From contig NZ_MWQN01000004.1 of assembly GCF_002024165.1 (NCBI RefSeq), positions 248,001 to 312,000 on the forward strand: 64,000 bases of DNA, read 5' to 3'. The position numbers and the translations under genes were made by a program. Numbering within the stretch: position 1 is the stretch's first letter; every line of letters starts with the position of its first letter. The stretch comes from Embleya scabrispora (lineage in GTDB: Bacteria; Actinomycetota; Actinomycetes; Streptomycetales; Streptomycetaceae). Shown piece by piece: positions 3,703-46,555 of this stretch. The notes under the pieces were generated by a model. It saw only the letters and a list, made by a program, of their open reading frames with translations. It was not told where the DNA came from and made no database searches.

Positions 3703-4742
3703 CTTCCCAGCACCCACCGACGCCCAGGGGCCGGCTCCCGAAGAACGGCCCACCTCCGCCCTGTGGCAGACACGTCCGGCCAGGCAACGCAAGGCGCGAT
3801 GTCGAGGCATCCCAGCTCAAAGCGCGCACCGAACGAGCTGTGACGGGTGACGGCGGGTTGTCATGCGCGATCGGGGCGAATCCGCCTTTGAAGGGGTGCG
3901 CGACCGATCCGTCGCGCACGACGGCTGGGTCCGGGCGCCGAGGTTTTGGCCGTCGCCGAGGGCAGGTTCTGTAGGTCGGCGCCGGCGGGCAGCCGGCGGG
4001 CCACGTCGTATACGGTCACGTGTTCATCCAACTCCCCGCCGTCGACGCTCGGTTGCCCGCCGGGCGCGTCGTGGGCAACCCGATTCCAAGCCGTCCGCGA
4101 AACGCTGGAGCACGACGTGCGCCGGAGCATCCGTACCACCGCCCGAAGCTCCGACCGAACACCTGCGACTGAGCCTGTCGAGCCACGGCCGTGGGCGATT
4201 CCCGGCCGAGCGCCGCGCGACGAAGCGGGCCGCGGCGACCGGTTCGGGCGCGGGCCTGGCGGTGGCGTGGTCGAACTCGCGTGCCGGGTCGGGTGATCCA
4301 GGAGTCGCAGCGCGAGCGGTGTGGTCGTTCACACGACCGCAGGCAGACGGCACCGGGTGGGTGCCAAAAGCCGAGCTGTGGGCCTCGTGCGGCGCGGTCC
4401 GCGGGCGGATCTCGGCGGGATTGCGCCGGTGGGCCAGGTGCCGTCCCTCCTTGACGCGTCGTTCCACCATCCCGCTGCGCACGCCCTCGAACCGGTGTTT
4501 TCACTGGAGGAAAAGGTGTCCAGGGCTTCGTGGGACGCCGCGCTGCCCTTCGCACTCCCGGGGAGGGATTCGGCTTTGAGCGCCTGCAGGACGGCGGCCT
4601 GTTCGTGGAGCTTGGGGGTGTTGTCGTTCTTGGTGTCCGCGACCGTGCTCTTGTCGGGGGTCGTCTCCAGCACGGAATCATGTCGCACCACAGGTCGACA
4701 CCGACGCAGCCGACGTCGTGGCGCTCGGTGGCGCGGTCCGAC
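3703..4742. other. Gene-poor stretch with decayed coding remnants
   Basis: No frame here looks like an intact gene. On the minus strand, around 3963-4028, about 20 codons read DEHVTVYDVARRLP. From memory this is a phrase found in conserved hypothetical actinomycete proteins, but no frame continues it in either direction. The minus-strand frame ending near 4691 begins with plausible codons (MVRHDSVLETTPDKS) but degenerates. I read the stretch as eroded gene remains. Confidence 0.35.
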
Positions 4743-32391: not shown

Positions 32392-33630
32392 TCAGCTCGT
32401 CGGCGCGGTCGAGGCGGCGGGAGGCGTCGAAGCGGCCGAGGGGCCGACGTGCAGTAGGCGATTGGGCGTTCCGGCGCGAACGTCGGCGATCTTGCCGACG
32501 GTGGCGTCGGCGATCAGCGCGCGTTCCACCTCGGCGGGGGTCGCCGTGGGGTGTTCGGACAGCCACAGGGCGGCGGCACCGGTCACGTGCGGCGCGGCCT
32601 GCGAGGTACCGGTCCTGGTGTTCGTGGCCGTGTCACCGGTGTACCAGGCCGACTTGATGTCCGTTCCGGGGGCGAACAGGTCCGTGCAGGAGCCGTAGTC
32701 GGAATCACCACGTCGTCGATCGCGGGAGTCGGCGTTGTTCACCACGATGGCCTGTGTGATCGCGCCCGGCGTGTTGCGGCACGCGTCCGCGCCGTCGTTA
32801 CCGGAGGAGACGACCCAGGTGACGCCCGAGGCTATCGAGTTGCGGATCGCGGTCTCCTCGCTGCGGCTGCGCGAACCGTTGATGCTCATGTTGACCACGG
32901 CCGGCTTCACGGCGTGCGCGGTGATCCAGTCGGCGGCGGCGATGATGTTCGAAGTGCTCGCGCTGTCCTTGCAGTCGAGCACCCGTACGGAGACCAGGTG
33001 CACGCCCTTGGCCACTCCGTAGTCCCGGCCGCCGATGGTGCCGGCCACGTGGGTGCCGTGCCCGAAACAGTCCTGACCGGCCCGGCCGTCCCCCACCTCG
33101 TCGACACCGACGCTCGCGCGTCGCTCGAACTGGCCGTGCGAGGTGCGGATGCCGCTGTCCACGACGTACACGGTCACCGCGCTCGCGGTGTTCGGGTAGG
33201 TGTACGCGTGATCCAGGGGCAGGCCGCGCTGGTCCACCCGGTCCAACCCCCAGGAAGGGGGATCGAACTGGGTGGACGCGGCGGTGTGTGCCTCGGTGTC
33301 CGGCTCCACGTAGGCCACCTGTGCGTCCGCGGCGATCCGGCGCACCTGCCCGGCGTCGAGGTCGGCGGTGAACCCGGCGAGGGCCGAGGCGTAGGTACGC
33401 ACGATCGTGCCGCCGTACGCCTCGACGAGGCGGGTGGACCGCGCTCGGATCGTGTCGGGTGGCAGGGTCGTGTCCTTGAACACCACGATGTGGCGACCCG
33501 TCGGTGGCCGGGCGGCGAAGTCGCTCGGATTCGCGGGGGCGTTGCCGGCGTGGGACTGCTGAACGGCGAGGAATGGAAGGAGGACCGCCGAGACGACGAC
33601 CGCGATCGACTTTCGGACTCGTGTGCGCAC
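32392..33630 (-). CDS. Secreted subtilisin-like S8 serine peptidase with I9 propeptide
   Basis: A 412-residue exported protease. The signal peptide ends near SHAG. The I9 inhibitor propeptide has HIVVFKDTTLPPD and AYVEPDTEAHT. The catalytic triad is Asp in VYVVDSGIRTSHG, His in GHGTHVAGTIGG and Ser in GTSQAAPHVTG; the oxyanion Asn lies in SSGNDGAD. The short C-terminal tail is Pro/Ala/Ser-rich with no added domain. GTG start with GGAG five bases before. It is divergent from a TrmB/LuxR-type regulator, in the arrangement commonly seen beside secreted peptidases in Streptomyces. Confidence 0.94.
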   Translation of the reverse strand: MRTRVRKSIAVVVSAVLLPFLAVQQSHAGNAPANPSDFAARPPTGRHIVVFKDTTLPPDTIRARSTRLVEAYGGTIVRTYASALAGFTADLDAGQVRRIAADAQVAYVEPDTEAHTAASTQFDPPSWGLDRVDQRGLPLDHAYTYPNTASAVTVYVVDSGIRTSHGQFERRASVGVDEVGDGRAGQDCFGHGTHVAGTIGGRDYGVAKGVHLVSVRVLDCKDSASTSNIIAAADWITAHAVKPAVVNMSINGSRSRSEETAIRNSIASGVTWVVSSGNDGADACRNTPGAITQAIVVNNADSRDRRRGDSDYGSCTDLFAPGTDIKSAWYTGDTATNTRTGTSQAAPHVTGAAALWLSEHPTATPAEVERALIADATVGKIADVRAGTPNRLLHVGPSAASTPPAASTAPTS

Positions 33631-33872
33631 ATCTGCTCCAGACGGGAGGGCTTCGACGCCTTGACGCCCCGACGCCATGCCGGATGCGGGATCCGGGATA
33701 CGGGGTTCGCAGGTCTACTCCCGATCCGAGTCGGCGGCGGCACACGTTCGCCAATGACACGAATGGGCGCACCACGCCAACCGGTTCGCCGTCCTGTCAT
33801 TCTTTTCCCGGATCGGGCAGCCTGTCCGCTCCACGGGACACGACGCCCGACCGGAAGGCGAAGGGGACGGCC

Positions 33873-34859
33873 ATGCGCGACGAGGAACTCCCCACACACC
33901 TGGCCCGCCTCGGTTTGGGGGATCGGGAGACCCTGCTGTACCTGGGCCTGCTGCGCACCGGACCCCTCGCGCCGGCGGAGGCGGCCGCACGCCTGGGCCT
34001 CGATCTCGACGAAGCGGACGAGTGCGTGAACCACCTCGTGGACCTGGGCCTGGTCTCCGCCGGCGGACCCGACCCGGCGGCCGTCACCCCGATCGAGCCG
34101 AGCATCGGCATCGAACGCCTCGCGCACACGCGCTCCGCGGAACTGCGCGAAGCCCAACTGGCGGCGATCGACGCCTACCGGCGATATCGTCGCTCCGTCC
34201 ACCCCCACGCCGCCATGGACGAACTGGTCGAAGTACTCACCGGATCGCGGGTCGAAGAGCGCATCCACCAGGCCGAGGGCGCCGCGAGATCCGAGGTGCT
34301 GCGCTTCGACTCGCCGCCGTACCACACGGGAGGGGTCCCCAACGAGACGGAGGAGCACAACCTCGCCCACGGCGTCGAGTACCGCATCGTCTACTCGAAG
34401 TCCGCCGTGCAGAACAATCGTTACTACGCGTGCAACATCCAGCCGTGCATCGCCGCCGGCGAACAGGCCCGCGTACTGCCCACCGTCCCCGTGAAACTGA
34501 CCATCTTCGACCGCCGCCAGGCCCTGGTGTCGATGTCGTTCGTCGAGGCCGACATCAACGACTCGATCCTCATCGTTCGCCCGTCGAGCCTGCTGTCGGC
34601 CCTGATCGGCCTGTTCGAATCCTCGTGGCGCTCGGCGTTCCCGCTACACCTGGGCGGCCGCGTCCCGACGACGCTGCGCCCCCTACACCGCCGCATCCTG
34701 GAACTGCTCGCCGGCGGCCTGACCGACGAGAACATCGCCGAACTGCTCGGCATCAGCCGCCGCACCCTGTCGCGCAACCTCGAACAACTCAACGCCGGCG
34801 CCGGCGCCACCACCCGCTTCCAACTCGCCCTGTACGCAACCCGAAAGGGCTGGATCTGA
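33873..34859 (+). CDS. TrmB-like/LuxR-type transcriptional regulator
   Basis: A 328-residue regulator. The N-terminal winged helix (LGLGDRETLLYLGLLRTGP, then EAAARLGLDLDEADECVNHL) resembles TrmB-type DNA-binding domains. The middle resembles a PLD-like sensing domain (RSEVLRFDSPPYH and LVSMSFVEADINDSILIV). The C-terminal LuxR-type helix-turn-helix reads RILELLAGGLTDENIAELLGIS. Such two-HTH proteins are common in streptomycetes and often sit beside exported hydrolases. GAAGGGGA precedes the ATG. It is probably the regulator of the divergent subtilase or of the whole minus-strand secreted set. Confidence 0.88.
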   Translation: MRDEELPTHLARLGLGDRETLLYLGLLRTGPLAPAEAAARLGLDLDEADECVNHLVDLGLVSAGGPDPAAVTPIEPSIGIERLAHTRSAELREAQLAAIDAYRRYRRSVHPHAAMDELVEVLTGSRVEERIHQAEGAARSEVLRFDSPPYHTGGVPNETEEHNLAHGVEYRIVYSKSAVQNNRYYACNIQPCIAAGEQARVLPTVPVKLTIFDRRQALVSMSFVEADINDSILIVRPSSLLSALIGLFESSWRSAFPLHLGGRVPTTLRPLHRRILELLAGGLTDENIAELLGISRRTLSRNLEQLNAGAGATTRFQLALYATRKGWI

Positions 34860-35298
34860 CAGCCGCCATCCACCGCATCGGGCGCGACGGCGGGGTACCG
34901 GGCCTGGTGGCCACGCTCGATCTCCTCCCCCGACCGTGAGCGCCTGGCAACGCGCCGGGCGGGCGGCACACACCGAACGGCGTTCCGGTGTCGGTGTCGA
35001 CGCGTCCAACTCCGTCCGGTGGGCCTGGAGGCCTGGCGGCTGCGCGCCAAGGTCGCTCCCGAAGGCGAAAGCCTGCGCCCGTGGCTCTTCGGGGTCGCCG
35101 TCAACGTTCTGCGCAACAGCGCCCGCGCGGCCCGCCGCTATCAGGTGGCCCCGGCCCGGGTCCCGGCCTGCGAGCCCGTCCCCGGGCAGCGTGTACCGCA
35201 TCGAGTGTCCCGAAGTTGTCGGGCCACCTCCCGGGCGGGGTGCGCGCTCGGCGCTCGACCGCCCGACGGCAACGGGCGCGACCACTACCGTGCTCCAC
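34860..35298. other. Stretch holding a sigma-factor fragment
   Basis: No intact gene. Apart from the sigma-70 fragment annotated separately, the sequence shows no protein-like frame. Confidence 0.4.
35019..35190 (+). pseudogene. Fragment of an ECF sigma factor (region 2)
   Basis: About 57 codons give LEAWRLRAKVAPEGESLRPW followed by LFGVAVNVLRNSARAARRY. This is the sigma-70 region 2 phrase found in ECF sigma factors of actinomycetes (normally preceded by VFLEAWR and followed by a linker and region 4). There is no helix before it, no region 4 after it, and the frame runs out into unrelated sequence. It is a decayed gene. Confidence 0.6.
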
Positions 35299-35727
35299 AT
35301 GGACTTGCAGACGAGCATGACGGGCCTGACCGACGAGGCCCGACAGCAGGTGCGCGACCGCGTATGGGTGCTGACCTCCCACGACCACGCCCTCGCCCTC
35401 CAGGTGGAAGCCGGCCTGCGCGAGGCGGTCGGCTCACCGGAGACCCATCAGGACCTGCCGGCCATCAACCGGCTCGAACGGCTACGGGAAACCCTCGCCG
35501 TCCTGGCGATCTCCCTCGCCCGCACCCACGGACACCTGGCGTGGTTCCTCTCCGGCGCCCTCACCGTCCTCGAACCCGTCCTGCGCTGGCGCGCCCTGCC
35601 CGCCGAGCGCCGTGAATCCTTCGGCACCGTCGTCCCCGACCCCGGGCAGTACACCCAAGCCGAGAACGCCGTCCGCCACCTCCAGGACACCATGGCCCAA
35701 ATCACCGCCACGCCACCGCAGCAGTGA
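35299..35727 (+). CDS. Small conserved-looking hypothetical protein
   Basis: A 142-residue, largely helical acidic protein without signal peptide or membrane segment. It opens MDLQTSMTGLTDEARQQV and contains INRLERLRETLAVLAISLA and a Trp-rich stretch (LAWFLSGALTVLEPVLRWRA). I do not recognise it. A second ATG six codons in is an alternative start. It ends convergent to the CrtI-like oxidoreductase gene. Confidence 0.55.
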   Translation: MDLQTSMTGLTDEARQQVRDRVWVLTSHDHALALQVEAGLREAVGSPETHQDLPAINRLERLRETLAVLAISLARTHGHLAWFLSGALTVLEPVLRWRALPAERRESFGTVVPDPGQYTQAENAVRHLQDTMAQITATPPQQ

Positions 35728-35806
35728 CCCGAGTCCGAGTCTTCCCGGGCCATCATCCGCCGAAGAAGTGGAGGAGGTGCCATACCCGAGCCGTCGGCCG
35801 GACACC

Positions 35807-37267
35807 TCACCGCGCCCCTCGGTCACACGGCCCCAGGCGCGGGGCGGTGCTCACGTCGAACTCCCTGTGCAGGGCGGCCCGGGCTGCGAAGTACCCGCAC
35901 ATGCCGTGCACGCCGGGGCCCGGGGGTGTCGACGCCGAGCACAGGTACACGCCGGGCAGGGGCGTACGGTACGGATTCCAGGCCGCCACCGGCCGGAAGA
36001 CGGACTGGGTGAGCGTGACGGCTCCCGCGCCGATGTCGCCGCCGGGATAGTTCGGGTTGTACGTCTCGTATGCGGCCGCCGACACACCGCGCGAGGCGAT
36101 CACCGTGTCGGTGAAGCCGGGGGCATACCGTTCGATGCGCCGGGTGATCAGCGGCACCGGATCCCGGGTGTCGCCGTTGGGCACATGGGCGTAGGCCCAC
36201 ACCGGGCGGCGGCCGCCGACGGCGCGGCCGGGGTCGGTCACGGCGGGGTCGACCAGGAGTACGAACGGTTCTTCGCCGGCTTCGCCCCGGACCGCCGCGT
36301 TCTCCGTCGCGATTGTCGCCGGGCGGGTACCTCCCAGGTGCACGGTCCCGGCCCGGCCCACCTCCGGGGCGGCCCACGGGATGGGCCCACCGACCAGGAA
36401 ATCGGCCTTCGCCGCGCCGGGACCGTAGCGGTAGCGGTCCAACGCGCGACGGTAGCGCGGCGGCAGCCGGTCGCCGGCCAGCGCGGCCAGGCCGCGCGGT
36501 GTGGTGTCCAGCATGATCACCCGGGCGTCGAGTTCCGCGAGGTCGGTGATCCGGCGGTCGGTGTGCACCGTACCGCCGTGCGCTCGCAGGTCGTCGGCCA
36601 GGGCATCGGCGATGCGAACGCTGCCGCCTTGCGGCAGCGGCCAGCCGGTCGCGTGGGCCAGGTGCCCGAGCAGCAGTGCGATGGCGCCTGCGGGCGCGCT
36701 GGGCAGTCGGCCCATCGCGTGCGCCGCGACTCCGGTGAGCAGTGCCCGGCCGGCCTCGGTACGCAACCCGTTGGTCCGCAGGAGGTGTCCGAGCACGCGC
36801 GGGCCCAGCAGCAGCGGGGCGGCGAAGTCGGGCGGCAGGGACCGCTGGCTGGACAACAGGAAGTCGGTCACGCCCGTACTGTGCCGCATCAGCGGCGCCA
36901 TCAGCCGTCGCCAGCGGCGGCCGTCCGGGCCGAGACCCTCGCAGGTCTCGGTGAGGTCGTGGTGGGCCAACGCGGCGGCGCCGCCGTCCAGGGGATGCGC
37001 GTAGGCGATCGGCGCCCGCAGCAGCGTCACGCCGCGCGCCGCGAGGTCGAACTCCCGGAAGAACGCGGACGCGGCGGCCATGGGGTGCACTGCCGCGCAG
37101 ACGTCGTGCCGGACCTCGGCGTCGAAGAGCGCCTGGGCGCGAAGGCCGCCGCCGATGGTGGCGGCCTGTTCGTGGACGTGCACGGTCAGCCCGGCGCGCG
37201 CCATGGTGACCGCGGCGGCCAGGCCGTTCGGGCCGCTGCCCACGACGGCGACGTCGACGCGCGTCAT
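35807..37267 (-). CDS. CrtI/phytoene-desaturase-like FAD oxidoreductase of the linaridin-type operon
   Basis: A 486-residue flavoprotein. The dinucleotide motif is VAVVGSGPNGLAAAVTMARAG, continuing through HEQAATIGGGLRA, as in CrtI, PDH-type desaturases and isomerases. The C-terminal FAD motif reads NPYRTPLPGVYLCSASTPPG with GMCGYFAARA. No carotenoid gene is nearby. It is the last gene of the precursor-methyltransferase-exporter operon and its ATG overlaps the exporter's stop (ATGA), so it is a tailoring enzyme candidate: reduction of dehydroamino acids or another redox step on the peptide. From memory, CrtI-like genes do occur in some linaridin clusters. Confidence 0.88.
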   Translation of the reverse strand: MTRVDVAVVGSGPNGLAAAVTMARAGLTVHVHEQAATIGGGLRAQALFDAEVRHDVCAAVHPMAAASAFFREFDLAARGVTLLRAPIAYAHPLDGGAAALAHHDLTETCEGLGPDGRRWRRLMAPLMRHSTGVTDFLLSSQRSLPPDFAAPLLLGPRVLGHLLRTNGLRTEAGRALLTGVAAHAMGRLPSAPAGAIALLLGHLAHATGWPLPQGGSVRIADALADDLRAHGGTVHTDRRITDLAELDARVIMLDTTPRGLAALAGDRLPPRYRRALDRYRYGPGAAKADFLVGGPIPWAAPEVGRAGTVHLGGTRPATIATENAAVRGEAGEEPFVLLVDPAVTDPGRAVGGRRPVWAYAHVPNGDTRDPVPLITRRIERYAPGFTDTVIASRGVSAAAYETYNPNYPGGDIGAGAVTLTQSVFRPVAAWNPYRTPLPGVYLCSASTPPGPGVHGMCGYFAARAALHREFDVSTAPRLGPCDRGAR

Positions 37268-38997
37268 GCCGGCGCTTCCTCGGTGGCGAACTGCAGGCCG
37301 GCAAGCCGCCGATACACCTCGTCCGACTCCACGAGTTCCCGGTGGGTACCGATCGCTCGCACGCGTCCCTCCTCCATGACGATGATGCGGTCGGCTTGCA
37401 CGATGGTGGACAGTCGATGGGCGATGGCCAGCACCGCGCACTCGCGAGCGGCTTCCGCCATCGCGTCGCGCAGCGCGGCCTCGGTCTCGCTGTCCAGGTG
37501 TGCGGTGACCTCGTCCAACAGAATCACCGCCGGCCTCTGCAACAACGTGCGGGCGATCGCGAGCCGCTGCCGCTGGCCGCCGGACAAGCCTGCGCCGCGC
37601 TCCCCGAGTTCGGTGTCGAGCCCGTCGGGCAGGGCGGCGACGAAGCCCGCCAGGCTGGCGAGCCGCAGCGCACGGGCGATCTCGGCCGGGTCGGCCTCGG
37701 GATTCGCATAGGTCAGATTCTCCCGGATCGTACCGCGCAGCAATGGCGTGTCCTGCTCGACGTAGCCCACCAACGACCGCAGTTCGGCGAGCCCGAGGCC
37801 GGCGACGTCACGGCCCGCGACCCGGATCGTGCCGGAATCCGGCCGGTGGAAACGCTCGATGAGCTGGAACATCGTCGTCTTCCCGGCGCCGGAGGCACCG
37901 ACGATCGCGGTCAGGCCGCGACACGGCAGGGTGAAGGAGACGCCCCGCAACACCGGGGCGTGCTCGCGATACGCGAATCCGACATTCTCGAAGCGGATCG
38001 CGGACGTCCACTGCGCGACGGGCTCGCACTCCCGCCCCTTCCCGGGTTCCGCGTGCACGTCCTCCTCCTGCGGAATCGCTCCCAGCTCCGCCACGCGCTG
38101 AACCGCGGCACGGCCCTGCTGGATCTGGCCGATCGACATGAACAGCACCACCAGCGGCGTCACCAGGTAGAACAGGTACATCACGAACGACGTGAGCTCG
38201 GCGGCCGACAGCGACCCCGTGGCGACGCGGGCCATGCCCCAGCAGACGACGACGGCGAGCGAGAGTTGGGTACCGACGTTGATCGCCGGAGTCAGGAGCG
38301 AACCGAACCCGGTGACCCGGATTCCGCTGCGCCGCGCCCGCGCCGCCAAAAGTGTCAGTTCCTCGGTCTCGCGCTCCTCCGCGCGCGACGCCTTGACCGT
38401 GGTGAGCGCGCCGAGCACCCGTTGCAGACCCGAACCGAACGCGCCGATGTCCTCCCGGTTCCGCAGGGCGGCGATGCGCACCCGACGGGCCAGCAGCAGC
38501 GCACAGCCACTGGCCAGGCCGAGGCAGCCGACCGCGGCAAGCAGCAGTCTCCAGTCGAGCCTGGCCATCAGCACGATCCCACCGCCCAGCATGAAGACGG
38601 AGGTCACCATCTGCGCCATCGCCTGAGCAATCGTCAGGCAGGCGATGGAGGTGTCGGACACGGTCCGCGCGAAGACGTCTCCGTGCTCCAGGCGCGAGAA
38701 GTGCGGGATCCGGCTGCGGAGCAGGCGGGCGCCGAGAACGCGCCGGACGTCGAAGACGATGTTCTCGCCGGCCCGGCCGATCGTATAGGCGTGTCCCGCG
38801 CTCAGCCCCGCGTCCACGAGGAAGAACAGCGCGATGAACGCGATGGGCCGCGCGATCGACTCGTCCAAAGACACGGCCCGGATCAGCCGACCCAGCATCC
38901 AGGGCTGAGCGAGCTTGGCCGCCGCACCGGCCAGGCCCAGGACCAGACCGCAGATCAGCAGGATTCGATGGCGGCGGACGATTTCTCGCAGGTTCAT
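37264..38997 (-). CDS. ABC exporter, fused permease and ATPase (linaridin LinT-like)
   Basis: A 577-residue half-transporter. Six N-terminal membrane helices (residues ~10-300; for example ILLICGLVLGLAGAAAKLA) precede an ATPase with Walker A GASGAGKTT, Q-loop VEQDTPLLRG, signature LSGGQRQRLA, Walker B VILLDE and switch IAHRLST. No N-terminal C39 peptidase domain is present, so leader removal must be done elsewhere. It probably works as a homodimer exporting the modified peptide. ATGA overlaps on both sides tie it to the methyltransferase and the CrtI-like enzyme. Confidence 0.93.
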   Translation of the reverse strand: MNLREIVRRHRILLICGLVLGLAGAAAKLAQPWMLGRLIRAVSLDESIARPIAFIALFFLVDAGLSAGHAYTIGRAGENIVFDVRRVLGARLLRSRIPHFSRLEHGDVFARTVSDTSIACLTIAQAMAQMVTSVFMLGGGIVLMARLDWRLLLAAVGCLGLASGCALLLARRVRIAALRNREDIGAFGSGLQRVLGALTTVKASRAEERETEELTLLAARARRSGIRVTGFGSLLTPAINVGTQLSLAVVVCWGMARVATGSLSAAELTSFVMYLFYLVTPLVVLFMSIGQIQQGRAAVQRVAELGAIPQEEDVHAEPGKGRECEPVAQWTSAIRFENVGFAYREHAPVLRGVSFTLPCRGLTAIVGASGAGKTTMFQLIERFHRPDSGTIRVAGRDVAGLGLAELRSLVGYVEQDTPLLRGTIRENLTYANPEADPAEIARALRLASLAGFVAALPDGLDTELGERGAGLSGGQRQRLAIARTLLQRPAVILLDEVTAHLDSETEAALRDAMAEAARECAVLAIAHRLSTIVQADRIIVMEEGRVRAIGTHRELVESDEVYRRLAGLQFATEEAPA

Positions 38998-39749
38998 GCG
39001 GGCTTGGTGTAGGACGCGACGAACAGGCCGGCGTCGAGTGTGTAATCGGCCCGCTGCCAGTTGCCGTAGTGGCCCTCGGGCCGCAGTCCGCAGTCCCGGG
39101 CATAGCCGTCGACCTCGTCGGGCGTGAGCAGCCGCGCGGTCTCGGTCCCGATCCGGTGCGTGCCGTCGCTCTCGAACAACACGGTGGAGACCTGCCAGAT
39201 CCGGTCGTCGGCCAGGAGAGTGGCGTGCAGTTGAAGGCCGGTGTCGCGCTCCGGGTACGGCACGAACAAGGTGGTGCGGACCAGCCCCTGATGCAGGTTC
39301 ACGATGCCGGGTTGGTTGTGCGTCTCGACCAGCAATCTGCCGCCGGGCCGCAGGTGTTCGGCCGCGCGGGCGACGGCGTCCCGCTGCCCCTCGGGGTCGA
39401 GGATCAGGGAGAGCGTGGAGCAGACGCAGTAGACGAGGCCGTACCGTCGGTCGCCGCGGTAGGTCCGGATATCGCCGAGTTCGGCGATCACCTCGCCCTC
39501 GTCGGCCTTCTCTTCGAGAGCTGCCAACATCTCCGGCGAGGAGTCCACGCCGACGACCGGGCCGACACGGTGGGACAGCGGCAGCGCGATACGGCCGGTC
39601 CCGACCCCGAACTCCAGCGTGCCCCGGGCCGGGTCCGGGTGGAATCGTGCCAGGGCGTCGACGGTGGCGCGGGTGGCGGCGGCGCTCGGGAAGACGCGGT
39701 CGTACCAGCCGCGGAACTGCCCTCCGTAGCCGATGTCTTCGATCGTCAT
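38994..39749 (-). CDS. SAM-dependent methyltransferase of the linaridin-type operon
   Basis: A 251-residue class I methyltransferase. Motif I is TLEFGVGTGRIALPL, the acidic end of strand 2 is VVGVDSSPEML, and motif IV is RYGLVYCVCSTLSLI. Size and position match CypM-type enzymes, which dimethylate the N-terminal alpha-amino group of linaridins. The predicted core here would start with Ala, as in cypemycin, which fits. The start was set by GGAGA five bases before an ATG eleven codons inside the longest frame. The stop overlaps the exporter start (ATGA). Confidence 0.85.
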   Translation of the reverse strand: MTIEDIGYGGQFRGWYDRVFPSAAATRATVDALARFHPDPARGTLEFGVGTGRIALPLSHRVGPVVGVDSSPEMLAALEEKADEGEVIAELGDIRTYRGDRRYGLVYCVCSTLSLILDPEGQRDAVARAAEHLRPGGRLLVETHNQPGIVNLHQGLVRTTLFVPYPERDTGLQLHATLLADDRIWQVSTVLFESDGTHRIGTETARLLTPDEVDGYARDCGLRPEGHYGNWQRADYTLDAGLFVASYTKPA

Positions 39750-39831
39750 GGGTTCTCCGTTTCCGTGGAAGGAGCTCGGCATGAGACGCCGCCGCGCCCG
39801 CGTCGATCCGCAGCCGACGCGTCCGAGCGGC

Positions 39832-40713
39832 TCACGGAGCGAGGGCGAGGCAGGGAGCGAGCCGGGTCGCGGCGGTCGATTCGCGGCGGCGCTGGGACAG
39901 CACGTAGTGGATCGCCGGATGCGTGGCGCCGAACGCGAGAACGAAGCGGTTGAGTCCCATGAACTCGCCGATGCCGACGTGGAACACCAACATCGTGGCG
40001 AGGTAGGCGCGAGCCGCGGGTTTGGGGAGCACGTAGATGAGGGGGAAGCCGCATTCGATGACGATGGTGCCCCAGGACAGTGCCGTGGAGATGACCGGGT
40101 AGCGGGTGATCAGGCGATGCGCGCGCGGATCACCGTAACTCTTCGTCCGCATCACCCCGGCAACGGCGTCACCCTTGAGCCAGACCGGGGAGACGGCTTT
40201 CACCACCCCGGAGGCGACGTAGGAGAGCGAGGTCTCCAGTGCCAGTGTCCGCATCGCCAGATCGTCGGCCTGTTCGAGGTCTCGGATCAGCCCGGTGGAG
40301 GCCATCGTGACGTTGATGACCTGCTGCAACTGGTCGGCGCCGTCGCGCCCGAACGGAATGAAGGCGGATTGCGCGCTCTGTAGGACGGCCAGCGTCAGGC
40401 CGCCGGCGATCCGCAGCGGCCGGTTTCCGGGCCACAGGAAGGTGGCCGCCGACACGGCGGCCTGCGTGCCGTAGAGCGTGTAGGGGAACGCCCTCGACGC
40501 CAGCGCGCGATTCACGCGGGGGAATCTCTGCGCGAGTCTCGGATGGAAGCTCTCGACCTGGCTTCCCAGCAGATCGCCCTTCACGAATCGTTTGTGTTGG
40601 CTGAGCGTCTCCAACGCCGCCACGAACGTGCCGGCGGAGGCGAGGCGGCGCACCGCGATGGACGGACGCGACGGGGCCAGGGACGAGGCCGCCCGGGTCA
40701 GGCGACGGAACAC
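39832..40713 (-). CDS. HTTM/LinL-like membrane protein, first gene after the precursor
   Basis: A 293-residue membrane protein with about four to six hydrophobic helices (RIAGGLTLAVLQSAQSAFIPF, ISTALSWGTIVIECGFPLIYV, LATMLVFHVGIGEFMG). The phrase FGRDGADQLQQVINV and the His in FHVGIGEF recall HTTM/vitamin K carboxylase-like transmembrane proteins. Linaridin clusters contain membrane proteins of unknown catalytic type (LinL, LinH) needed for Thr dehydration; this is the best candidate for that role here. GTG start with AAGGAG upstream. A strong hairpin separates it from the precursor. Confidence 0.75.
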   Translation of the reverse strand: MFRRLTRAASSLAPSRPSIAVRRLASAGTFVAALETLSQHKRFVKGDLLGSQVESFHPRLAQRFPRVNRALASRAFPYTLYGTQAAVSAATFLWPGNRPLRIAGGLTLAVLQSAQSAFIPFGRDGADQLQQVINVTMASTGLIRDLEQADDLAMRTLALETSLSYVASGVVKAVSPVWLKGDAVAGVMRTKSYGDPRAHRLITRYPVISTALSWGTIVIECGFPLIYVLPKPAARAYLATMLVFHVGIGEFMGLNRFVLAFGATHPAIHYVLSQRRRESTAATRLAPCLALAP

Positions 40714-40739
40714 GGAGTCTCCTTCCGGTGAGGGTGGGG

Positions 40740-40770
40740 GCCGGGGACAGGAAGGGCACCTGTCCCCGGC
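40740..40770 (-). terminator. Hairpin between precursor and downstream genes
   Basis: GCCGGGGACAGG and CCTGTCCCCGGC form a perfect 12-bp stem with a 7-base loop, lying after the precursor gene and 27 bases before the next start. In RiPP operons a leaky terminator at this place gives excess precursor message over enzyme message. Confidence 0.8.
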
Positions 40771-40956
40771 TGTGACGGTGTCGGGCGGCGCGGGGCGGTT
40801 CGCCGTACGCCGAACATCGCGCGGCGCGCACGAGCAGCGCGCCGCCGTTGGGAACGTCGGCGGCCCCGGCGCCTGCGAGGCACGGCCGGTACGGTCACCG
40901 GCCGCCGGTGGTCCCGGCCGGGTCCCCGCCCGCGACACCGGGTTCGGCGCCGACCG

Positions 40957-41154
40957 TCAGTGAGCGTTTCGGTTGACGTAGTTGGCGATGTTCTGCGCCA
41001 GCATGTCCGTTGCGACCGCGAAGACGGCCGTGATGAGCGGGGTGGCCATCACGGGGTCGGCGGGGCTGTCCAGGCGGGCGGCGTCGATTCCCGAGAGCAT
41101 CCCCGGGGAGACATCGGTCAGGGATGCGTTGGCGAATTGGGCTACTGGCGACAT
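40957..41154 (-). CDS. Linaridin-like RiPP precursor peptide (65 residues)
   Basis: A short ORF with a fine ribosome site (AAAGGGAAC before ATG). The leader-like half includes AQFANASLTDVSPGML; then comes DSPADPVMATP, containing P-x-x-x-T-P (PVMATP), the motif that spans the cleavage site in linaridins. CypA of cypemycin has PAMATP there and a related FAN..L phrase in the leader (from memory). Cleavage after Met36 would free a 29-residue core beginning ATPLITAVFAVATD and ending NYVNRNAH. It has three Thr, no Ser and no Cys, so no AviCys ring is possible. Surrounding genes fit a precursor role. Confidence 0.82.
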   Translation of the reverse strand: MSPVAQFANASLTDVSPGMLSGIDAARLDSPADPVMATPLITAVFAVATDMLAQNIANYVNRNAH

Positions 41155-41306
41155 GTGTTCCCTTTCATAGTGATCCTTCGGTGGATCTCCGACGGTGCGG
41201 TGACTGCTCCCCAGCGGGGCACGAGGCCCGTCTCGGCTGGGGGTCCCGCTCTCACGTGCGGGTGTGGGTGATTCGGCGTGAGGGCGAGGCTCCCGGCCGA
41301 CGCGGT

Positions 41307-41873
41307 CTACCGCGCGGCTGCGGCTGCCGACGAATCGGGGCGCAGCGGGATGTGCCGAGAGGCGAACAAGGGTTCCACCGCGTACGGTTGCCCGCGTTCG
41401 GGGTGACCCCGCAGCAGCATGAACTGCGTGTGGTCGGCGCCCGGGTCGTGCGGGATCCGGGTGGTCAGGTAGTCCCGAAGGATCAGGTAGCCGGGGCTGG
41501 AGGTGATCCGGACCATGTCGGCGCACGAATCGTTGGACACCTTGATGATGACCTGGAGCGTGTCGAGGAGGACCTTGGGGGCGCGGTTGCCCGCGTTCCA
41601 GGCCAGGGCATACCACGGCCGGTCCGGGGTCACCTCGATTTCCTTCCAGGGAGCCGCCGTGCCCGCGGTGATGTCCCGGTAGAGCAGGTGTGCGTCGTCC
41701 ACGCCGGGATTGGGGCCGAAGAACCGCCAGTTGGGCGCCGGAAGGAGGCGAAAGGGGCCTCTTGCCAGAAGACGGTCGAATCGCTGGTCGGGAAGCTGGC
41801 CGGCGACGGTGCTGACCAGCCATGCCGCGAGCCCGGTGGATACCGCCGAGTAGACGACGCGTTGCCCGTTCAT
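41307..41873 (-). CDS. HTTM-associated/LinH-type protein of the linaridin-like operon
   Basis: A 188-residue protein. One N-terminal helix (VVYSAVSTGLAAWLVSTVAG) is followed by a soluble part with RLLPAPNWRFFGPNPGVDD and AHLLYRD. Phrases of this kind occur in the soluble tails of HTTM/DUF5819-like actinomycete proteins. It has no known catalytic motif. Its ATG overlaps the hydrolase stop (ATGA), and it lies directly upstream of the precursor. In linaridin clusters two membrane proteins are thought to act together in dehydration and epimerisation; this may be part of such a complex. Confidence 0.7.
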   Translation of the reverse strand: MNGQRVVYSAVSTGLAAWLVSTVAGQLPDQRFDRLLARGPFRLLPAPNWRFFGPNPGVDDAHLLYRDITAGTAAPWKEIEVTPDRPWYALAWNAGNRAPKVLLDTLQVIIKVSNDSCADMVRITSSPGYLILRDYLTTRIPHDPGADHTQFMLLRGHPERGQPYAVEPLFASRHIPLRPDSSAAAAAR

Positions 41874-42817
41874 GCCCTGCCCCCGGGGACGATCAGTTCG
41901 GCGATGGTCTTCGCGGGGGTCTCCTCCGCGACGACCCCCATGTGGTCGGCGTCCTCCCGCACGTGATGCGAGGACACATCCGACAGCTCCAGCATCCGTT
42001 CCTGCGACGCGCGGTGCGCGACACCGCGCGTGCCCTTCAACGCCGTCACCACGTGCAGCGGGACGGCCACCTTCCCGACGGGCGGGTAGGTGCGCGCCGC
42101 CATGTACTCCCGGTACGCGGTGGCCCACACCCGCGGCCGGGCGTGGTACGCGGTGAGACTCTCCTTGACGTCCTCGGCGTAGTGTTCGCGAACCGGTGTC
42201 ATCGGGCGTAGGACGTTGAGCCCGGAGGCGGCCCACAGGCATTCCATCAGCAGCCGCTGGCGCGTCCACCAGTCGGGCAACAGGCCGAGACTGGCCTGCA
42301 GGTCGGCGATGATCGTGGGGTCGACCATCACCACGTGGGACAGATTCGCGTCGGTCCGCGAGGCGGCGTACGCGGCGGCCATGTAGCCGCCGATCGAGTG
42401 CCCCACCAGGACCAGCGGCAGGCCGTCGAGATAGTGCCCGCGCAACTCGTCGACGATGCGGAACTGTTCCGCCAAGCCGATGTCCGGCAGCGGACTGCTG
42501 AGCCCGTGACCGGGCCGGTTGTAGCCCACGCAGGCCGCGTTCTCGGGCAGGTGCTCGCGTACCCGGGCCCATTGTTCGTGCGGAAGACCGAGGCCGTTGA
42601 AGAAGATCACCCCGAACTCCGCGCCGGACGGGCGCAGGTGGTCGACCTCGACCACGCGGCCGTCGGCGCGGGCCATCGTGGAGAACGCCGCCCTCCGCCG
42701 CCGGCTGCCGAGAAGCCGCGTCCGCGCACCGACCGCCCAACCGCCGACGCACAAGGCCGCCACGCCGACGGCCACCTTCCGCTCCATGGACATCATTCCC
42801 ACTGTCCGCGCGCCCAT
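41870..42817 (-). CDS. Membrane-anchored alpha/beta hydrolase (LinH/CypH-like), first gene of the operon
   Basis: A 315-residue protein. An N-terminal anchor (VAVGVAALCVGGWAVGA) precedes an alpha/beta-hydrolase fold: FFNGLGLPHEQWARV, nucleophile elbow VGHSIGGYMAA (Ser), a candidate acid in the later loop, and His in EDADHMGVV. CypH-type linaridin proteins combine a membrane part with a hydrolase-like domain and are essential in the pathways studied. A very strong AGGAGGAG site six bases before the ATG decides the start. Twin palindromes about 135 bp upstream may control the operon. Confidence 0.83.
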   Translation of the reverse strand: MGARTVGMMSMERKVAVGVAALCVGGWAVGARTRLLGSRRRRAAFSTMARADGRVVEVDHLRPSGAEFGVIFFNGLGLPHEQWARVREHLPENAACVGYNRPGHGLSSPLPDIGLAEQFRIVDELRGHYLDGLPLVLVGHSIGGYMAAAYAASRTDANLSHVVMVDPTIIADLQASLGLLPDWWTRQRLLMECLWAASGLNVLRPMTPVREHYAEDVKESLTAYHARPRVWATAYREYMAARTYPPVGKVAVPLHVVTALKGTRGVAHRASQERMLELSDVSSHHVREDADHMGVVAEETPAKTIAELIVPGGRA

Positions 42818-43152
42818 CTGCTCTCCTCCTGTGTGATCTCGGAGCCGGGCCTCACCCCGGGCCGACGGCCCCGAAGGCGCATCGTCCCCGCCCCGGTGCG
42901 CCCTTCGAACCTGGGCCACCGGGTGTCGGGCGGGCAAGCGGCACCGCCGTCCGGGACATGTCCGGATCGGTGCGGGACATGTCCGGGACACCTCACGAAC
43001 ACGCCCGGCGCCTGAACGCGCGGGCATTGCACCGCACGTCACGGCGACACCATCGCGAAGGGCATCCCTGGAGGCGCGTTCGAACGGGTCGACGATCAAT
43101 AGGCTCTCCTGAGCGCCACGAACCGTGGTTCGAGCCGAGCCAAGGGGGATTC
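42818..43152. other. Divergent promoter region of the linaridin-like operon
   Basis: No gene. It contains the two GGACATGTCC palindromes annotated separately; the rest shows no clear -10/-35 pair that I trust. Confidence 0.45.
42951..42986. promoter_or_regulatory. Twin GGGACATGTCCGG palindromes
   Basis: GGACATGTCC occurs as a perfect 10-bp palindrome at 42954-42963 and again at 42975-42984, each flanked by G and GG. The spacing is 21 bp, two helical turns, so two dimers would sit on one face. It lies between the divergent RiPP operon and a propeller-like gene. The regulator is not in the window as far as I can tell. Confidence 0.65.
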
Positions 43153-44295: not shown

Positions 44296-44853
44296 CTAGC
44301 CGCTGGAGGACAGGCGGCTTGCAGCTTGATCCCACGGCTGCGGCTCGACCACGTCGTCCCTGTCGCAGGCGCCCTCCTCGAACCAACCCGTTCCCGCGAG
44401 CCATGTCTCCAGCCACGCGGCCAGGCCGGCGGAATCGAGGAACCAGCACTCCTCCCACGACCCGCCGCCATAGGGGTTCGGCTCGAAGAGCAGGACTTGA
44501 CCATCCTCATCGAAACAGTCCACACCTGCATACATGGCACAGCCCCAGGTCATGATCGGCACGACACCTTCGGGCCAGTCCGGATGCTCCTCTCCAGCGG
44601 ATTCCTCCCGTCGCGCGAGATACTCGCCAACGACGCCGGTGCCCGGACCGAGCAGTGGCAACAGTTGGTAATCGGGGCCGAAGCCGCCGTCGGCGACCTC
44701 GCGATACAGGCGCGCAAGCAGCGGGTGCAGCGCGAACCCCAGTCGCGCCTCGGCCTCCGCGATCTGCCGAGGGCCGACCCGAGCGGGAAGGACGCGGTTG
44801 TCGGATGCGGCCCGGATGGCGACGCGCCGCACAAGGTCATCGATGTCCGTCAT
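44296..44853 (-). CDS. SMI1/KNR4 (SUKH) family protein
   Basis: A 185-residue protein of the SUKH group. EAEARLGFALHPLLARLYREVADGGFGPDY is the family's N-terminal phrase (written here as one helix-loop unit), followed by a TWGCAMYAGVDCFDEDGQVLLF region and a Trp-rich end. Bacterial SUKH proteins are often immunity proteins against polymorphic toxins, but many are solitary, as this one. No toxin gene is adjacent. The ATG has no strong ribosome site; an in-frame ATG about 64 codons upstream (within 45043-45045) is a less likely alternative. Confidence 0.75.
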   Translation of the reverse strand: MTDIDDLVRRVAIRAASDNRVLPARVGPRQIAEAEARLGFALHPLLARLYREVADGGFGPDYQLLPLLGPGTGVVGEYLARREESAGEEHPDWPEGVVPIMTWGCAMYAGVDCFDEDGQVLLFEPNPYGGGSWEECWFLDSAGLAAWLETWLAGTGWFEEGACDRDDVVEPQPWDQAASRLSSSG

Positions 44854-45105
44854 GGCCGTGATGCTGCCGGCCCCTACCGACGTCCTGACGGTACGCGCAC
44901 GGTGTCGCCGTAGCGCCAGGAGACCGAAAGACCGCCCGTGCTCGTCGCCTTCGAAGCGGACGCCGGTGGGGCGCATCCGGTCTCGTGCCTCATCGACGCG
45001 GCGAAGGCACGCGGTGGGGATCCGGATCGCTTCATAACGATCCATTATGTCGAGCACGCAGATATTGCGGTTCCCGATGATCGGAGCCGTATCTACGCTG
45101 GCCCC

Positions 45106-46011
45106 ATGGCCCCTCCTTCCGTCGGATACCACCACGTGGACGTGTTCGCCGAACTGCCCTACACCGGCAACAGCTTGGCCGTGTTCGTCGATCCGCCGAC
45201 GCTGTCGGTCGATCGGATGCTCCGGATCACCCGGGAGCTTCGGCACTTCGAGTCGATCTTCGTGGGCCGTCGAACGGACAACGTGATCCACGCGCGTGTG
45301 TTCGACCTGATCGAGGAACTCGGCTTCGCCGGGCACCCCGTCATGGGCGCCGCCGCAGTGCTTCACCTGCGGAGCGCGGTCGCCTCGGGCGAAGAACTCC
45401 GATGGACGTTCGAACTGCCCGCGCGGACCGTACGGGTCACCACCAGCGGCGACGACGCGGGCCGCGTGTTCGCCCTGCTCGACCAGGGCCGTCCCGAACT
45501 GGTCGCCCGCGCAGACGCCATCGACCGGGTGGCGGTCGCCGCCTCGCTGGGTCTGAGCCCGGACGAACTCCGAGAGGACCTGCCGACGGAGGTGCACTCC
45601 ACCGGCCTGCGCTACCTGATCGTGCCGGTGCGCGACGCCGACGTGCTCGGCAGAGCGCACATTCGCCGCGCGGACTTCGATGCCTTTCTCGCCGCCCTCG
45701 GGGCGGAGTTCGTCTACGTCCTCGACGTCGACTCGCTTCAGGGCAGGCACTGGAACAACGACGGCGTCCGGGAGGACGTCGCCACCGGAAGCGCCGCAGG
45801 CTGCGTGGCGGCGTACCTGATGCGCCACGGGCACGCGTGCCACGGCCGTCCATCGGCGCTCGGCCAGGGGCGGTTCGTGGGCAGGCCCAGCACGATCACG
45901 ATCACCGCGTACGGTCGGCCCGACGAGGTCGAACGGGTCATCGTGGGCGGCACGGTGACGCCGGTGGGCACCGGTACGCTGCACGCTCTCCCGGCCGAGG
46001 GGCGGCCGTGA
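45106..46011 (+). CDS. PhzF-family isomerase/epimerase-like protein
   Basis: A 301-residue protein with the two-lobed PhzF fold. HVDVFAELPYTGNSLAVF is the family start, the catalytic Glu is in LRHFESIFV, the conserved GHPVMGAAAVL carries His, and DVATGSAAGCVAAYL holds the second-lobe Asp. PhzF isomerises a dihydroanthranilate in phenazine synthesis, but most members, including solitary ones like this, have unknown substrates. The ATG has no ribosome site and may be read from a leaderless message (TACGCT seven bases before as -10). An inverted repeat CATAA-N7-TTATG lies about 60 bp upstream. Confidence 0.87.
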   Translation: MAPPSVGYHHVDVFAELPYTGNSLAVFVDPPTLSVDRMLRITRELRHFESIFVGRRTDNVIHARVFDLIEELGFAGHPVMGAAAVLHLRSAVASGEELRWTFELPARTVRVTTSGDDAGRVFALLDQGRPELVARADAIDRVAVAASLGLSPDELREDLPTEVHSTGLRYLIVPVRDADVLGRAHIRRADFDAFLAALGAEFVYVLDVDSLQGRHWNNDGVREDVATGSAAGCVAAYLMRHGHACHGRPSALGQGRFVGRPSTITITAYGRPDEVERVIVGGTVTPVGTGTLHALPAEGRP

Positions 46012-46555
46012 CCCCGGCGGGCACGCGGCCGGCCCCGGAGGTCTTCCCCGCCGCGTCCATGCGGCACGCCGTCGGGCTCGCGGACCTGCTCGAAACGGGT
46101 CGCTCGACGCCCTGCCGCACTCGCCGGCCGCGCGGCAATGGGCCGAGGACGTCCTTCGGGGTGCCCTCATGCCCCCCGACGCACCGAGCGCGGTTGACGC
46201 TGCGCGCCTGGTTCGCCGCCGACGCGCACGCCGGCTGGGCCGCCGCCGCGATCGGCATCTCCGTGTCCGCACTCCTGGACGTCCCCAAAGGAAGCCTGGA
46301 CGCCGGTACGGCTCGGCGTTCCAGAACGGGAGGAGTGGCTACGTGCTGGATATACAGGGTGGTTCGGACCGGTCCGGCACCGTGGCGATCCAGTGGCCCC
46401 GGAACGGCGGCTACAACCAGCAGTGGTCCAGGGTGTAGCGCCGGATCCGTCCCTCCACACCCGCACGGATCGCGGACAGCCATGCGAACACTCCCTCGCC
46501 GCACCGCACATGGAGCCGTGCGGGCGACGATCGGCAGCGACCCGGCCCCCCTGTC
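46012..46555. other. Stretch of gene remnants after phzF-like gene
   Basis: No intact gene in 540 bp. Around 46190-46300 a segment reading LRAWFAADAHAGWAAAAIG looks protein-like but has no start. A lectin-domain remnant follows and is annotated separately. Confidence 0.4.
46307..46438 (+). pseudogene. C-terminal remnant of a ricin-B-type lectin domain
   Basis: The last 43 codons of a frame read SGYVLDIQGGSDRSGT, then VAIQWPRNGGYNQQW before the stop. This is a complete beta-trefoil lobe with the QxW signature (NQQW). Nothing upstream in the frame resembles the rest of such a protein and no signal peptide is present. The natural stop is kept, the 5' part is lost. Confidence 0.6.

What the first reader, a model, noticed from the sequence alone, without database searches (positions are those of the whole stretch)
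35807..42817. Previously unannotated-looking linaridin-type RiPP operon
Seven minus-strand genes form one unit, with ATGA overlaps at three junctions: membrane-anchored alpha/beta hydrolase (CypH/LinH-like), HTTM-associated small membrane protein, 65-residue precursor with PxxxTP, HTTM/LinL-like membrane protein, SAM methyltransferase, ABC exporter without peptidase domain, CrtI-like flavoprotein. Seen: the gene set, overlaps and motif. Known: linaridin clusters (cypemycin, legonaridin) share a LinH hydrolase-type protein, LinL membrane protein, a methyltransferase and an ABC transporter, and precursors with a PxxxTP motif. Inferred: that this is a linaridin pathway, nearest to the type-B branch because no CypD-like decarboxylase and no core Cys are present.
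Basis: partly seen in the sequence, partly recalled or inferred. Interest (0 to 1): 0.92.

Follow-up and report, generated by a model that had tools for sequence, protein, structure and literature searches.

The report
Type-B linaridin peptide gene cluster
A soil actinomycete of the genus Embleya carries a seven-gene set for making and exporting a chemically modified antibiotic-like peptide of a known class (linaridins); the cluster is a member of that class, and comparing it with relatives gives a testable clue to how the class makes its unusual amino acids.

Summary
Confirmed: seven minus-strand genes at 35807-42817, three ATGA overlaps, a 65-residue precursor with PVMATP. The precursor matches NCBIfam 'linaridin-like RiPP' NF033403 at 78.1 bits (cut-off 40). 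The legonaridin producer Streptomyces sp. CT34 has homologues of all seven genes, 41-66% identical for the six enzymes. Corrections: the 187-residue protein is the LinL counterpart; the HTTM-like protein and the hydrolase are the two halves of type-A LinH, one 585-residue ORF in S. griseus. The CrtI-like flavoprotein is also in the CT34 locus. New here: (1) the cluster is mosaic: LinL groups with the CT34 type, the flavoprotein with a different linaridin type. (2) The HTTM-like protein is predicted to fold like vitamin-K gamma-carboxylase. (3) The hydrolase Ser and His are kept in 96 of 104 loci and lost in all 4 where LanB/LanC genes were found, and in 4 others at least partly; this suggests that the hydrolase takes part in Thr dehydration. 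Ordinary as a cluster, useful as a handle on linaridin chemistry.

The parts
41870..42817 (-). alpha/beta hydrolase (crdE-type; second half of type-A LinH), 315 aa, N-terminal hydrophobic stretch, candidate triad Ser141-Asp166-His292
   Evidence: Abhydrolase_6 E 1.2e-17; triad columns; 41% to CT34 homologue
41307..41870 (-). LinL-type small membrane protein, 187 aa, WRFFGPNP motif; DUF5819-related
   Evidence: aligns with the gene that follows LinH in S. griseus, 11742-12308 of L058; 16 of 36 rows hit DUF5819, the window protein itself does not
40957..41154 (-). precursor peptide, 65 aa: leader 1-36, predicted core 37-65 ATPLITAVFAVATDMLAQNIANYVNRNAH
   Evidence: NF033403 78.1 bits over cut-off 40; six related precursors also over cut-off
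39832..40713 (-). HTTM/SdpB-like membrane protein (crdG-type; first half of type-A LinH), 293 aa
   Evidence: AF2 model pLDDT 89.8, top 8 PDB matches all vitamin-K gamma-carboxylase; weak SdpB hit; K172, E220, H245 invariant in 35 rows
38994..39746 (-). SAM methyltransferase (LinM-type, predicted alpha-N-methyltransferase)
   Evidence: Methyltransf_25 E 5e-14; daptide_MTase 72.6 bits, under its cut-off of 175; 55% to CT34
37264..38997 (-). ABC exporter, 577 aa, no peptidase domain (LinT-type)
   Evidence: ABC_membrane and ABC_tran; 53% to CT34
35807..37267 (-). CrtI/CrtO-like FAD oxidoreductase, 486 aa, role unknown
   Evidence: NAD_binding_8; BCarotKetCrtO 77.4 bits, under its cut-off; 66% to CT34

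Best explanation
A type-B (legonaridin-like) linaridin cluster. Proposed course: the leader guides the precursor to a membrane complex of the hydrolase, the HTTM-like protein and LinL, which dehydrates up to three core Thr (38, 42, 49) to Dhb and may epimerise residues. A protease, not identified, cuts before Ala37 in PVM/ATP; the methyltransferase dimethylates Ala37; the ABC exporter secretes the peptide. The flavoprotein does a further redox step that cannot be named. Shown here: gene set, motifs, homology, fold prediction, mosaic history. Inferred: the complex, the order and all chemistry. Expected masses if dimethylated: 3108.618, 3090.607 or 3072.597 Da (monoisotopic, neutral) for 1, 2 or 3 dehydrations.
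For: Precursor NF033403 78.1 bits, E 3.7e-22. Streptomyces sp. CT34 (producer of a 3.6 kDa linaridin, PMC4319589, read whole; named with legonaridin in PMC9927463, passages and discussion read) has T-X-M-H-E-A-L homologues at 53, 66, 55, 41, 49, 47 (over 49 columns) and 54% identity; its precursor hits NF033402 at 132.8 bits. 24 of 73 loci have all seven homologues placed. In the type-A locus of S. griseus the HTTM part and the hydrolase are one ORF followed by LinL and a methyltransferase. The seven-gene block is conserved as a unit in E. hyalina and Embleya sp. NBC_00888; no NF033403 and no LinL-like match was found in the other 2 of 4 Embleya genomes searched. The predicted CT34 core with 8 dehydrations and dimethylation weighs 3600.9 Da; other dehydration counts give 3583-3745, so the fit to 3.6 kDa is loose.
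Against: No product is known to me for this cluster. The core is Thr-poor (3, and 2 in NBC_00888 where Thr42 is Ala) against 8 Thr in CT34, so the modifications may be few. NF033402, the family of the CT34 precursor, is hit only below its cut-off (29.1 of 35). No leader protease or regulator is in the block. The linaridin papers of Claesen and Bibb and of Georgiou were not held, so gene names rest on PMC9927463 and on recall; that paper speaks of a short-chain oxidoreductase in the legonaridin cluster, where I find the CrtI-like flavoprotein.
Confidence: 0.93

Rival explanations
1. The product is not a classical linaridin: the trio (HTTM-like, hydrolase, LinL) mainly epimerises or isomerises, and little or no dehydration occurs in this Thr-poor sub-branch.
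For: Only 2-4 Thr in the cores of the three Embleya precursors and a shared tail NIANYV(D/N)R in 6 of the 7 NF033403 precursors, window included. grmL is reported as a putative epimerase gene (PMC10373908, passage seen, citing Xiao 2022). The trio also occurs beside LanB/LanC, where dehydration is already provided.
Against: The hydrolase triad is intact here, and two Thr, that of AT(P/F) and that before D/G, are present in all 7 NF033403 precursors.
Confidence: 0.2
2. A decayed or silent remnant.
For: Accessory, patchy distribution; exporter not found in two Micromonospora relatives, methyltransferase not in S. hoynatensis.
Against: All seven ORFs are intact; the precursor differs from its two Embleya relatives by mostly synonymous changes (8:2 and 12:2); the triad residues are kept.
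Confidence: 0.05
3. Daptide or another RiPP class that uses a related methyltransferase.
For: daptide_MTase is the best NCBIfam hit of the methyltransferase (72.6 bits).
Against: The hit is far below its cut-off (175), and the precursor and the other genes match linaridin loci.
Confidence: 0.02

Closest known systems
Legonaridin-producer locus of Streptomyces sp. CT34 (type-B linaridin)
   Same: Homologues of all seven genes; H-E-A-L sub-order; PxxxTP; no Cys in the precursor
   Different: Order T-X-M-H-E-A-L there, H-E-A-L-M-T-X here; predicted core 37 aa with 8 Thr against 29 aa with 3; core residue 1 Ile against Ala; precursor model NF033402 against NF033403; flavoprotein in another clade
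Corynaridin (Corynebacterium lactis; PMC9927463, passages and discussion read)
   Same: HTTM protein (crdG), hydrolase (crdE), LinL, exporter, PxxxTP, no decarboxylase
   Different: It lacks a methyltransferase and has a short-chain oxidoreductase; here there is a methyltransferase and a CrtI-like flavoprotein
Type-A (grisemycin-like) locus in Streptomyces griseus NCTC13033, L058
   Same: HTTM part, hydrolase, LinL, methyltransferase
   Different: HTTM and hydrolase in one ORF, a gene taken for CypD-like is present, no CrtI-like flavoprotein found. Against a clean split: L032, whose precursor is over the CypA-family cut-off, does have the flavoprotein (60%)
Linaridin-like loci on Streptomyces plasmids (S. 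californicus L008 and kin)
   Same: Methyltransferase, exporter and flavoprotein 71, 78 and 81% identical
   Different: HTTM, hydrolase and LinL only 32, 25 and 31% identical, HTTM and hydrolase fused
SdpA/SdpB and DUF5819/HTTM gene pairs (SDP toxin production and kin)
   Same: HTTM-like protein matches an SdpB (hhalign E 5e-9, prob 96) and an HTTM partner of DUF5819 (E 2e-13, prob 98); LinL matches that DUF5819 protein (E 3e-6, prob 88)
   Different: LinL does not match the SdpA tested (prob 1.2); no hydrolase is part of the pair

Membership tests
Linaridin (class) | Precursor of the linaridin model families with a PxxxTP cleavage motif | tested here: met
   NF033403 over cut-off, NF033402 under cut-off; PVMATP
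Linaridin (class) | LinL homologue | tested here: met
   187-aa protein aligned with the LinL position of S. griseus and CT34; in one clade with the CT34 group, 100/100
Linaridin (class) | LinH or its split halves (HTTM protein and alpha/beta hydrolase) | tested here: met
Linaridin (class) | No lanthipeptide dehydratase or cyclase | tested here: met
   None among the seven genes or the seven flanking ORFs scanned with Pfam
Linaridin (class) | Linear peptide with dehydrobutyrine in the product | not testable with these tools
   Needs mass spectrometry
Type-B linaridin | No CypD-like decarboxylase, no C-terminal Cys | tested here: met
   Precursor has no Cys; Pfam domains of the seven genes show no such decarboxylase
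Type-B linaridin | Oxidoreductase gene in the cluster | tested here: inconclusive
   A flavoprotein 66% identical to one in the CT34 locus is present, but PMC9927463 speaks of a short-chain oxidoreductase in the legonaridin cluster, which I did not see among the ORFs of L048 looked at
Type-B linaridin | Alpha-N-dimethylation | not testable with these tools
   Methyltransferase gene present; activity not shown; corynaridin lacks it
Daptide | daptide_MTase model over its cut-off | tested here: not met
   72.6 bits against 175

The most novel reading that the evidence does not exclude
The linaridin trio is a membrane peptide-modifying machine of a kind not yet described. A carboxylase-fold (GGCX/SdpB-like) protein with an invariant Lys supplies the base for alpha-proton abstraction, and the Ser-Asp-His hydrolase supplies the step that makes Thr lose water. 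Where LanB takes over dehydration the hydrolase loses its Ser and His while the other two proteins stay, for example for epimerisation. The trio would be a derived form of the SdpB/DUF5819-HTTM type of membrane pair, which would then also be a peptide-modifying enzyme.
Probability: 0.3. Interest if true: 0.8.

Novelty: new member of a known kind. Interest (0 to 1): 0.45.

Why it matters
As a cluster it adds to the linaridins a member of a Thr-poor sub-branch with a shared Asn-rich tail. PMC9927463 (passages) calls the exact mechanism of the hydrolase and HTTM proteins unclear, while a review (PMC10880069, passages) ascribes cypemycin dehydration to kinase and lyase enzymes, neither of which is in this block. 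The comparison made here (hydrolase Ser and His lost in all 4 loci where LanB/LanC genes were found, kept in all 66 with the flavoprotein or with methyltransferase plus exporter; HTTM protein with a predicted carboxylase fold) gives a specific hypothesis that single gene removals can test. The exchange of the methyltransferase-exporter-flavoprotein part between two core types suggests that this part works independently of the core-modifying trio, which could matter for combining pathways.

Tried and rejected
Daptide reading of the methyltransferase: rejected (under cut-off). HTTM protein as LinL: rejected on the S. griseus and CT34 gene layouts. LinL as SdpA: no significant match to the one SdpA tested. 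Fold search of the LinL model: no match at E 0.001, probability 0.10 or less in the 50 rows shown (model pLDDT 79.8). The profile search of the HTTM alignment against PDB sequences found nothing, so the carboxylase link rests on the predicted fold and on weak HTTM Pfam hits in 4 of 35 rows. The equivalence of Lys172 with the catalytic Lys218 of GGCX (number recalled) was not tested. Sigma-70 promoter scan: 0 sites; terminator scan: 3 against 1.8 expected, not informative. The subtilase at 32392-33678 as leader protease: no support, since most of it with the regulator lies elsewhere in two other Embleya genomes, one of them without NF033403. Whether the genome is E. scabrispora NF3 (a linaridin is predicted there; PMC5408122, read whole): cannot tell; eight scaffolds like ours but 10.76 against 10.96 Mb. 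The CypD marker came from a wrong reading frame; its hits were ignored. Loci with a hydrolase match of 600 bases or less (500 or less) were dropped before the triad count; two of them, L074 (His column Pro, end damaged or misaligned) and L083 (Gly at the Asp column, hydrolase lying apart from the pair), departed from the triad. LanB/LanC were sought only by tblastn with the proteins of L007 and L013. The 4 LanB/LanC loci are 3 lineages (L007 and L139 are over 90% identical). Four further losses have no LanB/LanC found: L156 (lies beside a gene that looks like a radical SAM enzyme by eye), L158 and L160 (one lineage), L166 (lost Ser and Asp, keeps His); the last three loci are unexplained. Six kept-triad loci (L146, L169, L172, L174, L177, L178) have neither LanB/LanC nor the flavoprotein or methyltransferase-exporter markers.

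Full report
Observation. The seven genes are real, at the coordinates given, on the minus strand, with ATGA overlaps at three junctions. The precursor, 65 residues with PVMATP at 34-39, matches NCBIfam NF033403 'linaridin-like RiPP' at 78.1 bits (cut-off 40) and NF033402 'linaridin family RiPP' below its cut-off (29.1 of 35). The host is an Embleya: genome G020, listed as same genus, carries the block on a contig of 62,803 bases, the length of the Embleya hyalina NBRC 13850 contig found. Embleya sp. NBC_00888 has the block on a 5.7 Mb linear plasmid record.

Limits of the block. DNA similarity to those two loci covers 35795-43011 (NBC_00888) and 35813-42909 (E. hyalina) and stops there on both sides, within the stretches held. 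The left neighbours, window 32453-34871 (subtilase and TrmB-like regulator), are found elsewhere in 2 other Embleya genomes; in one of them, G020, the cluster lies on another contig. NF033403 is found in 2 of 4 Embleya genomes and in 3 of 297 genomes drawn from the family at E 0.001 (2 over cut-off), and in 2 of 396 drawn from the phylum (1 over cut-off, the window's own genome). A rare accessory cluster.

Membership. A scan of genome contigs (one genome for each of 84,980 species by the tool's description) with the alignment of HTTM proteins gave 56 loci. One is Streptomyces sp. CT34, named with legonaridin in PMC9927463 (passages and discussion read) and described as producer of a 3.6 kDa linaridin in PMC4319589 (read whole). 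It has homologues of all seven window genes: exporter 53%, flavoprotein 66%, methyltransferase 55%, hydrolase 41%, LinL 49%, HTTM-like 54%, precursor 47% over 49 columns. The order is T-X-M-H-E-A-L there and H-E-A-L-M-T-X here (H hydrolase, E the LinL-type protein, A precursor, L the HTTM-like protein, M methyltransferase, T exporter, X flavoprotein). Its precursor hits NF033402 at 132.8 bits. That this is the legonaridin precursor is inferred; its core from Ile with 8 dehydrations and dimethylation would weigh 3600.9 Da, but other dehydration counts give 3583-3745 Da, so the agreement is loose.

Names. In S. griseus NCTC13033 (L058, type A) one 585-residue ORF spans the HTTM part and the hydrolase; an overlapping 188-residue ORF follows, then a gene that I take by recall for the CypD-like flavoprotein, then a methyltransferase. 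HTTM and hydrolase share one ORF in 26 of the 63 loci in which both were placed. PMC9927463 names the separate proteins crdG (HTTM), crdE (hydrolase) and crdL (LinL). PMC5719810 (passage seen) reports cypH, cypL, cypD and cypT homologues in Brevibacterium 239c; L078, titled Brevibacterium sp. 239c, shows the fused ORF followed by a LinL-like ORF (97 codons as called here).

Sub-branch. NF033403 is over cut-off in the window precursor and in six others: L005, L034, L035, L036, L037, L038. L039 (S. hoynatensis) is close in its HTTM-like, hydrolase and LinL proteins, but its precursor is over the NF033402 cut-off instead. Six of the seven cores share the tail NIANYV(D/N)R; L038 has NVYNYVAR. Thr38 and a Thr before D/G are present in all seven. 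Thr is scarce in the Embleya cores: 2 in NBC_00888, 3 in the window, 4 in E. hyalina, against 8 in the CT34 core. The exporter was not found in L035 and L038, the methyltransferase not in L039.

Mosaic history. The S. californicus plasmid locus L008 has methyltransferase, exporter and flavoprotein at 71, 78 and 81% identity to the window, but HTTM, hydrolase and LinL at only 32, 25 and 31%; DNA similarity covers window 35828-39761 only. In trees of 20 chosen rows, the flavoprotein puts 6 window-group rows with 4 swap rows (L008, L142, L144, L145) at 100/100 and rejects window group plus CT34 group (p-AU 9e-81); LinL puts the window group with the CT34 group at 100/100 and rejects window group plus swap rows (p-AU 1e-65). 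The groups were chosen after an earlier tree, so these p-values are not from a blind test; trees of exporter, methyltransferase, hydrolase and HTTM protein were not made. The direction of transfer is open.

Mechanism, HTTM protein. The AF2 model (pLDDT 89.8, 35 rows) has as its eight best PDB matches only vitamin-K-dependent gamma-carboxylase (GGCX), probability 0.99-1.00, TM by query 0.51-0.60, Foldseek E 0.005-0.11; none reaches E 0.001. The HTTM Pfam model is hit by 4 of 35 rows (best 7.5e-6; not by the window protein), the SdpB model by 26 of 35 (best 9.5e-7), the window protein at 2.4e-4 and 20.8 bits against a cut-off of 178.4. Lys172, Glu220 and His245 are invariant in the 35 rows, and the hhalign pairs keep Lys172 and His245 in one SdpB and in one HTTM partner of DUF5819 (E-values are for one comparison each).

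Mechanism, hydrolase. Ser141, Asp166 and His292 are a plausible triad. Of 104 rows, 96 keep Ser and His. The 8 that do not include all 4 loci in which LanB and LanC were found beside the trio (L007, L139, L013, L167), and none of the 66 loci with the flavoprotein or with methyltransferase plus exporter. Fisher p 1.5e-5; after clustering the hydrolases at 60% identity, 3 of 3 LanB clusters against 3 of 29 others, p 0.004. The LanB proteins of L007 and L013 match Lant_dehydr_N and Lant_dehydr_C over nearly their whole profiles; that of L167 was matched by tblastn only, at 48%. I read this as a sign that the hydrolase serves dehydration. The losses without LanB/LanC (L156, L158, L160, L166) show that other causes exist. 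No chemical route by which a Ser hydrolase would dehydrate Thr is known to me, and PMC10880069 (passages seen) ascribes cypemycin dehydration to kinase and lyase enzymes, no such gene being in this block.

Mechanism, other genes. The exporter has no peptidase domain. CypM dimethylates the N-terminal Ala of cypemycin (PMC11285071, passage seen); the window core is also predicted to begin with Ala. The flavoprotein was placed in 37 of the 70 loci with both LinL and the HTTM protein, and not in L058 and its type-A kin, so it seems dispensable for the type-A chemistry. One locus cuts across this: L032, with a precursor over the CypA-family cut-off, has the flavoprotein at 60%. Its substrate is unknown.

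Verdict. A new member of a known kind, type-B linaridin, with an unusual Thr-poor core and a mosaic history. What is worth following is the hydrolase and HTTM comparison.

Literature. In the listings of paper searches I saw no title or abstract opening that links the linaridin hydrolase triad to LanB or the HTTM protein to the carboxylase fold. Most listed papers were not opened and the main linaridin papers are not held, so this says little about print at large.

Noticed in passing
   Followed up: partly
L211 1521-3483, L213 1853-3531, L212 1988-3513: Two-gene pairs DUF5819 + HTTM and SdpA + SdpB that resemble the LinL + HTTM pair, in Bacillus, Streptomyces and Rhodococcus plasmids.
   Followed up: partly
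L081, L083, L084, L086, L088: LinL-like and HTTM-like genes next to each other without an adjacent hydrolase match, in Nocardia, a Mycobacteriaceae MAG and an Anaerolinea MAG contig.
   Followed up: no
L008 2898-5850 and 7310-14408: S. californicus plasmid seems to carry two linaridin-like sets in opposite orientation, one with the flavoprotein and one without (from the record's annotation, and two LinL places).
   Followed up: no
L035, L038 between methyltransferase and flavoprotein: The exporter gene was not found in two Micromonospora relatives of the cluster.
   Followed up: no
window 35259-35735: Stretch just downstream of the cluster has a copy elsewhere in the same genome (83% on contig 5; a part at 82% on contig 3); the ORF has no Pfam match.
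   Followed up: partly
window 32392-34859: Secreted subtilase with I9 propeptide and an opposite-strand TrmB-like regulator, found elsewhere in two other Embleya genomes.
   Followed up: partly
window 44296-46272: PhzF-like gene on the plus strand opposite an ORF with a SUKH (SMI1/KNR4) domain.
   Followed up: no
L156 6073-7860: A protein that looks like a radical SAM enzyme by eye, with a possible small precursor, beside a trio whose hydrolase lacks its Ser, Asp and His.
   Followed up: no
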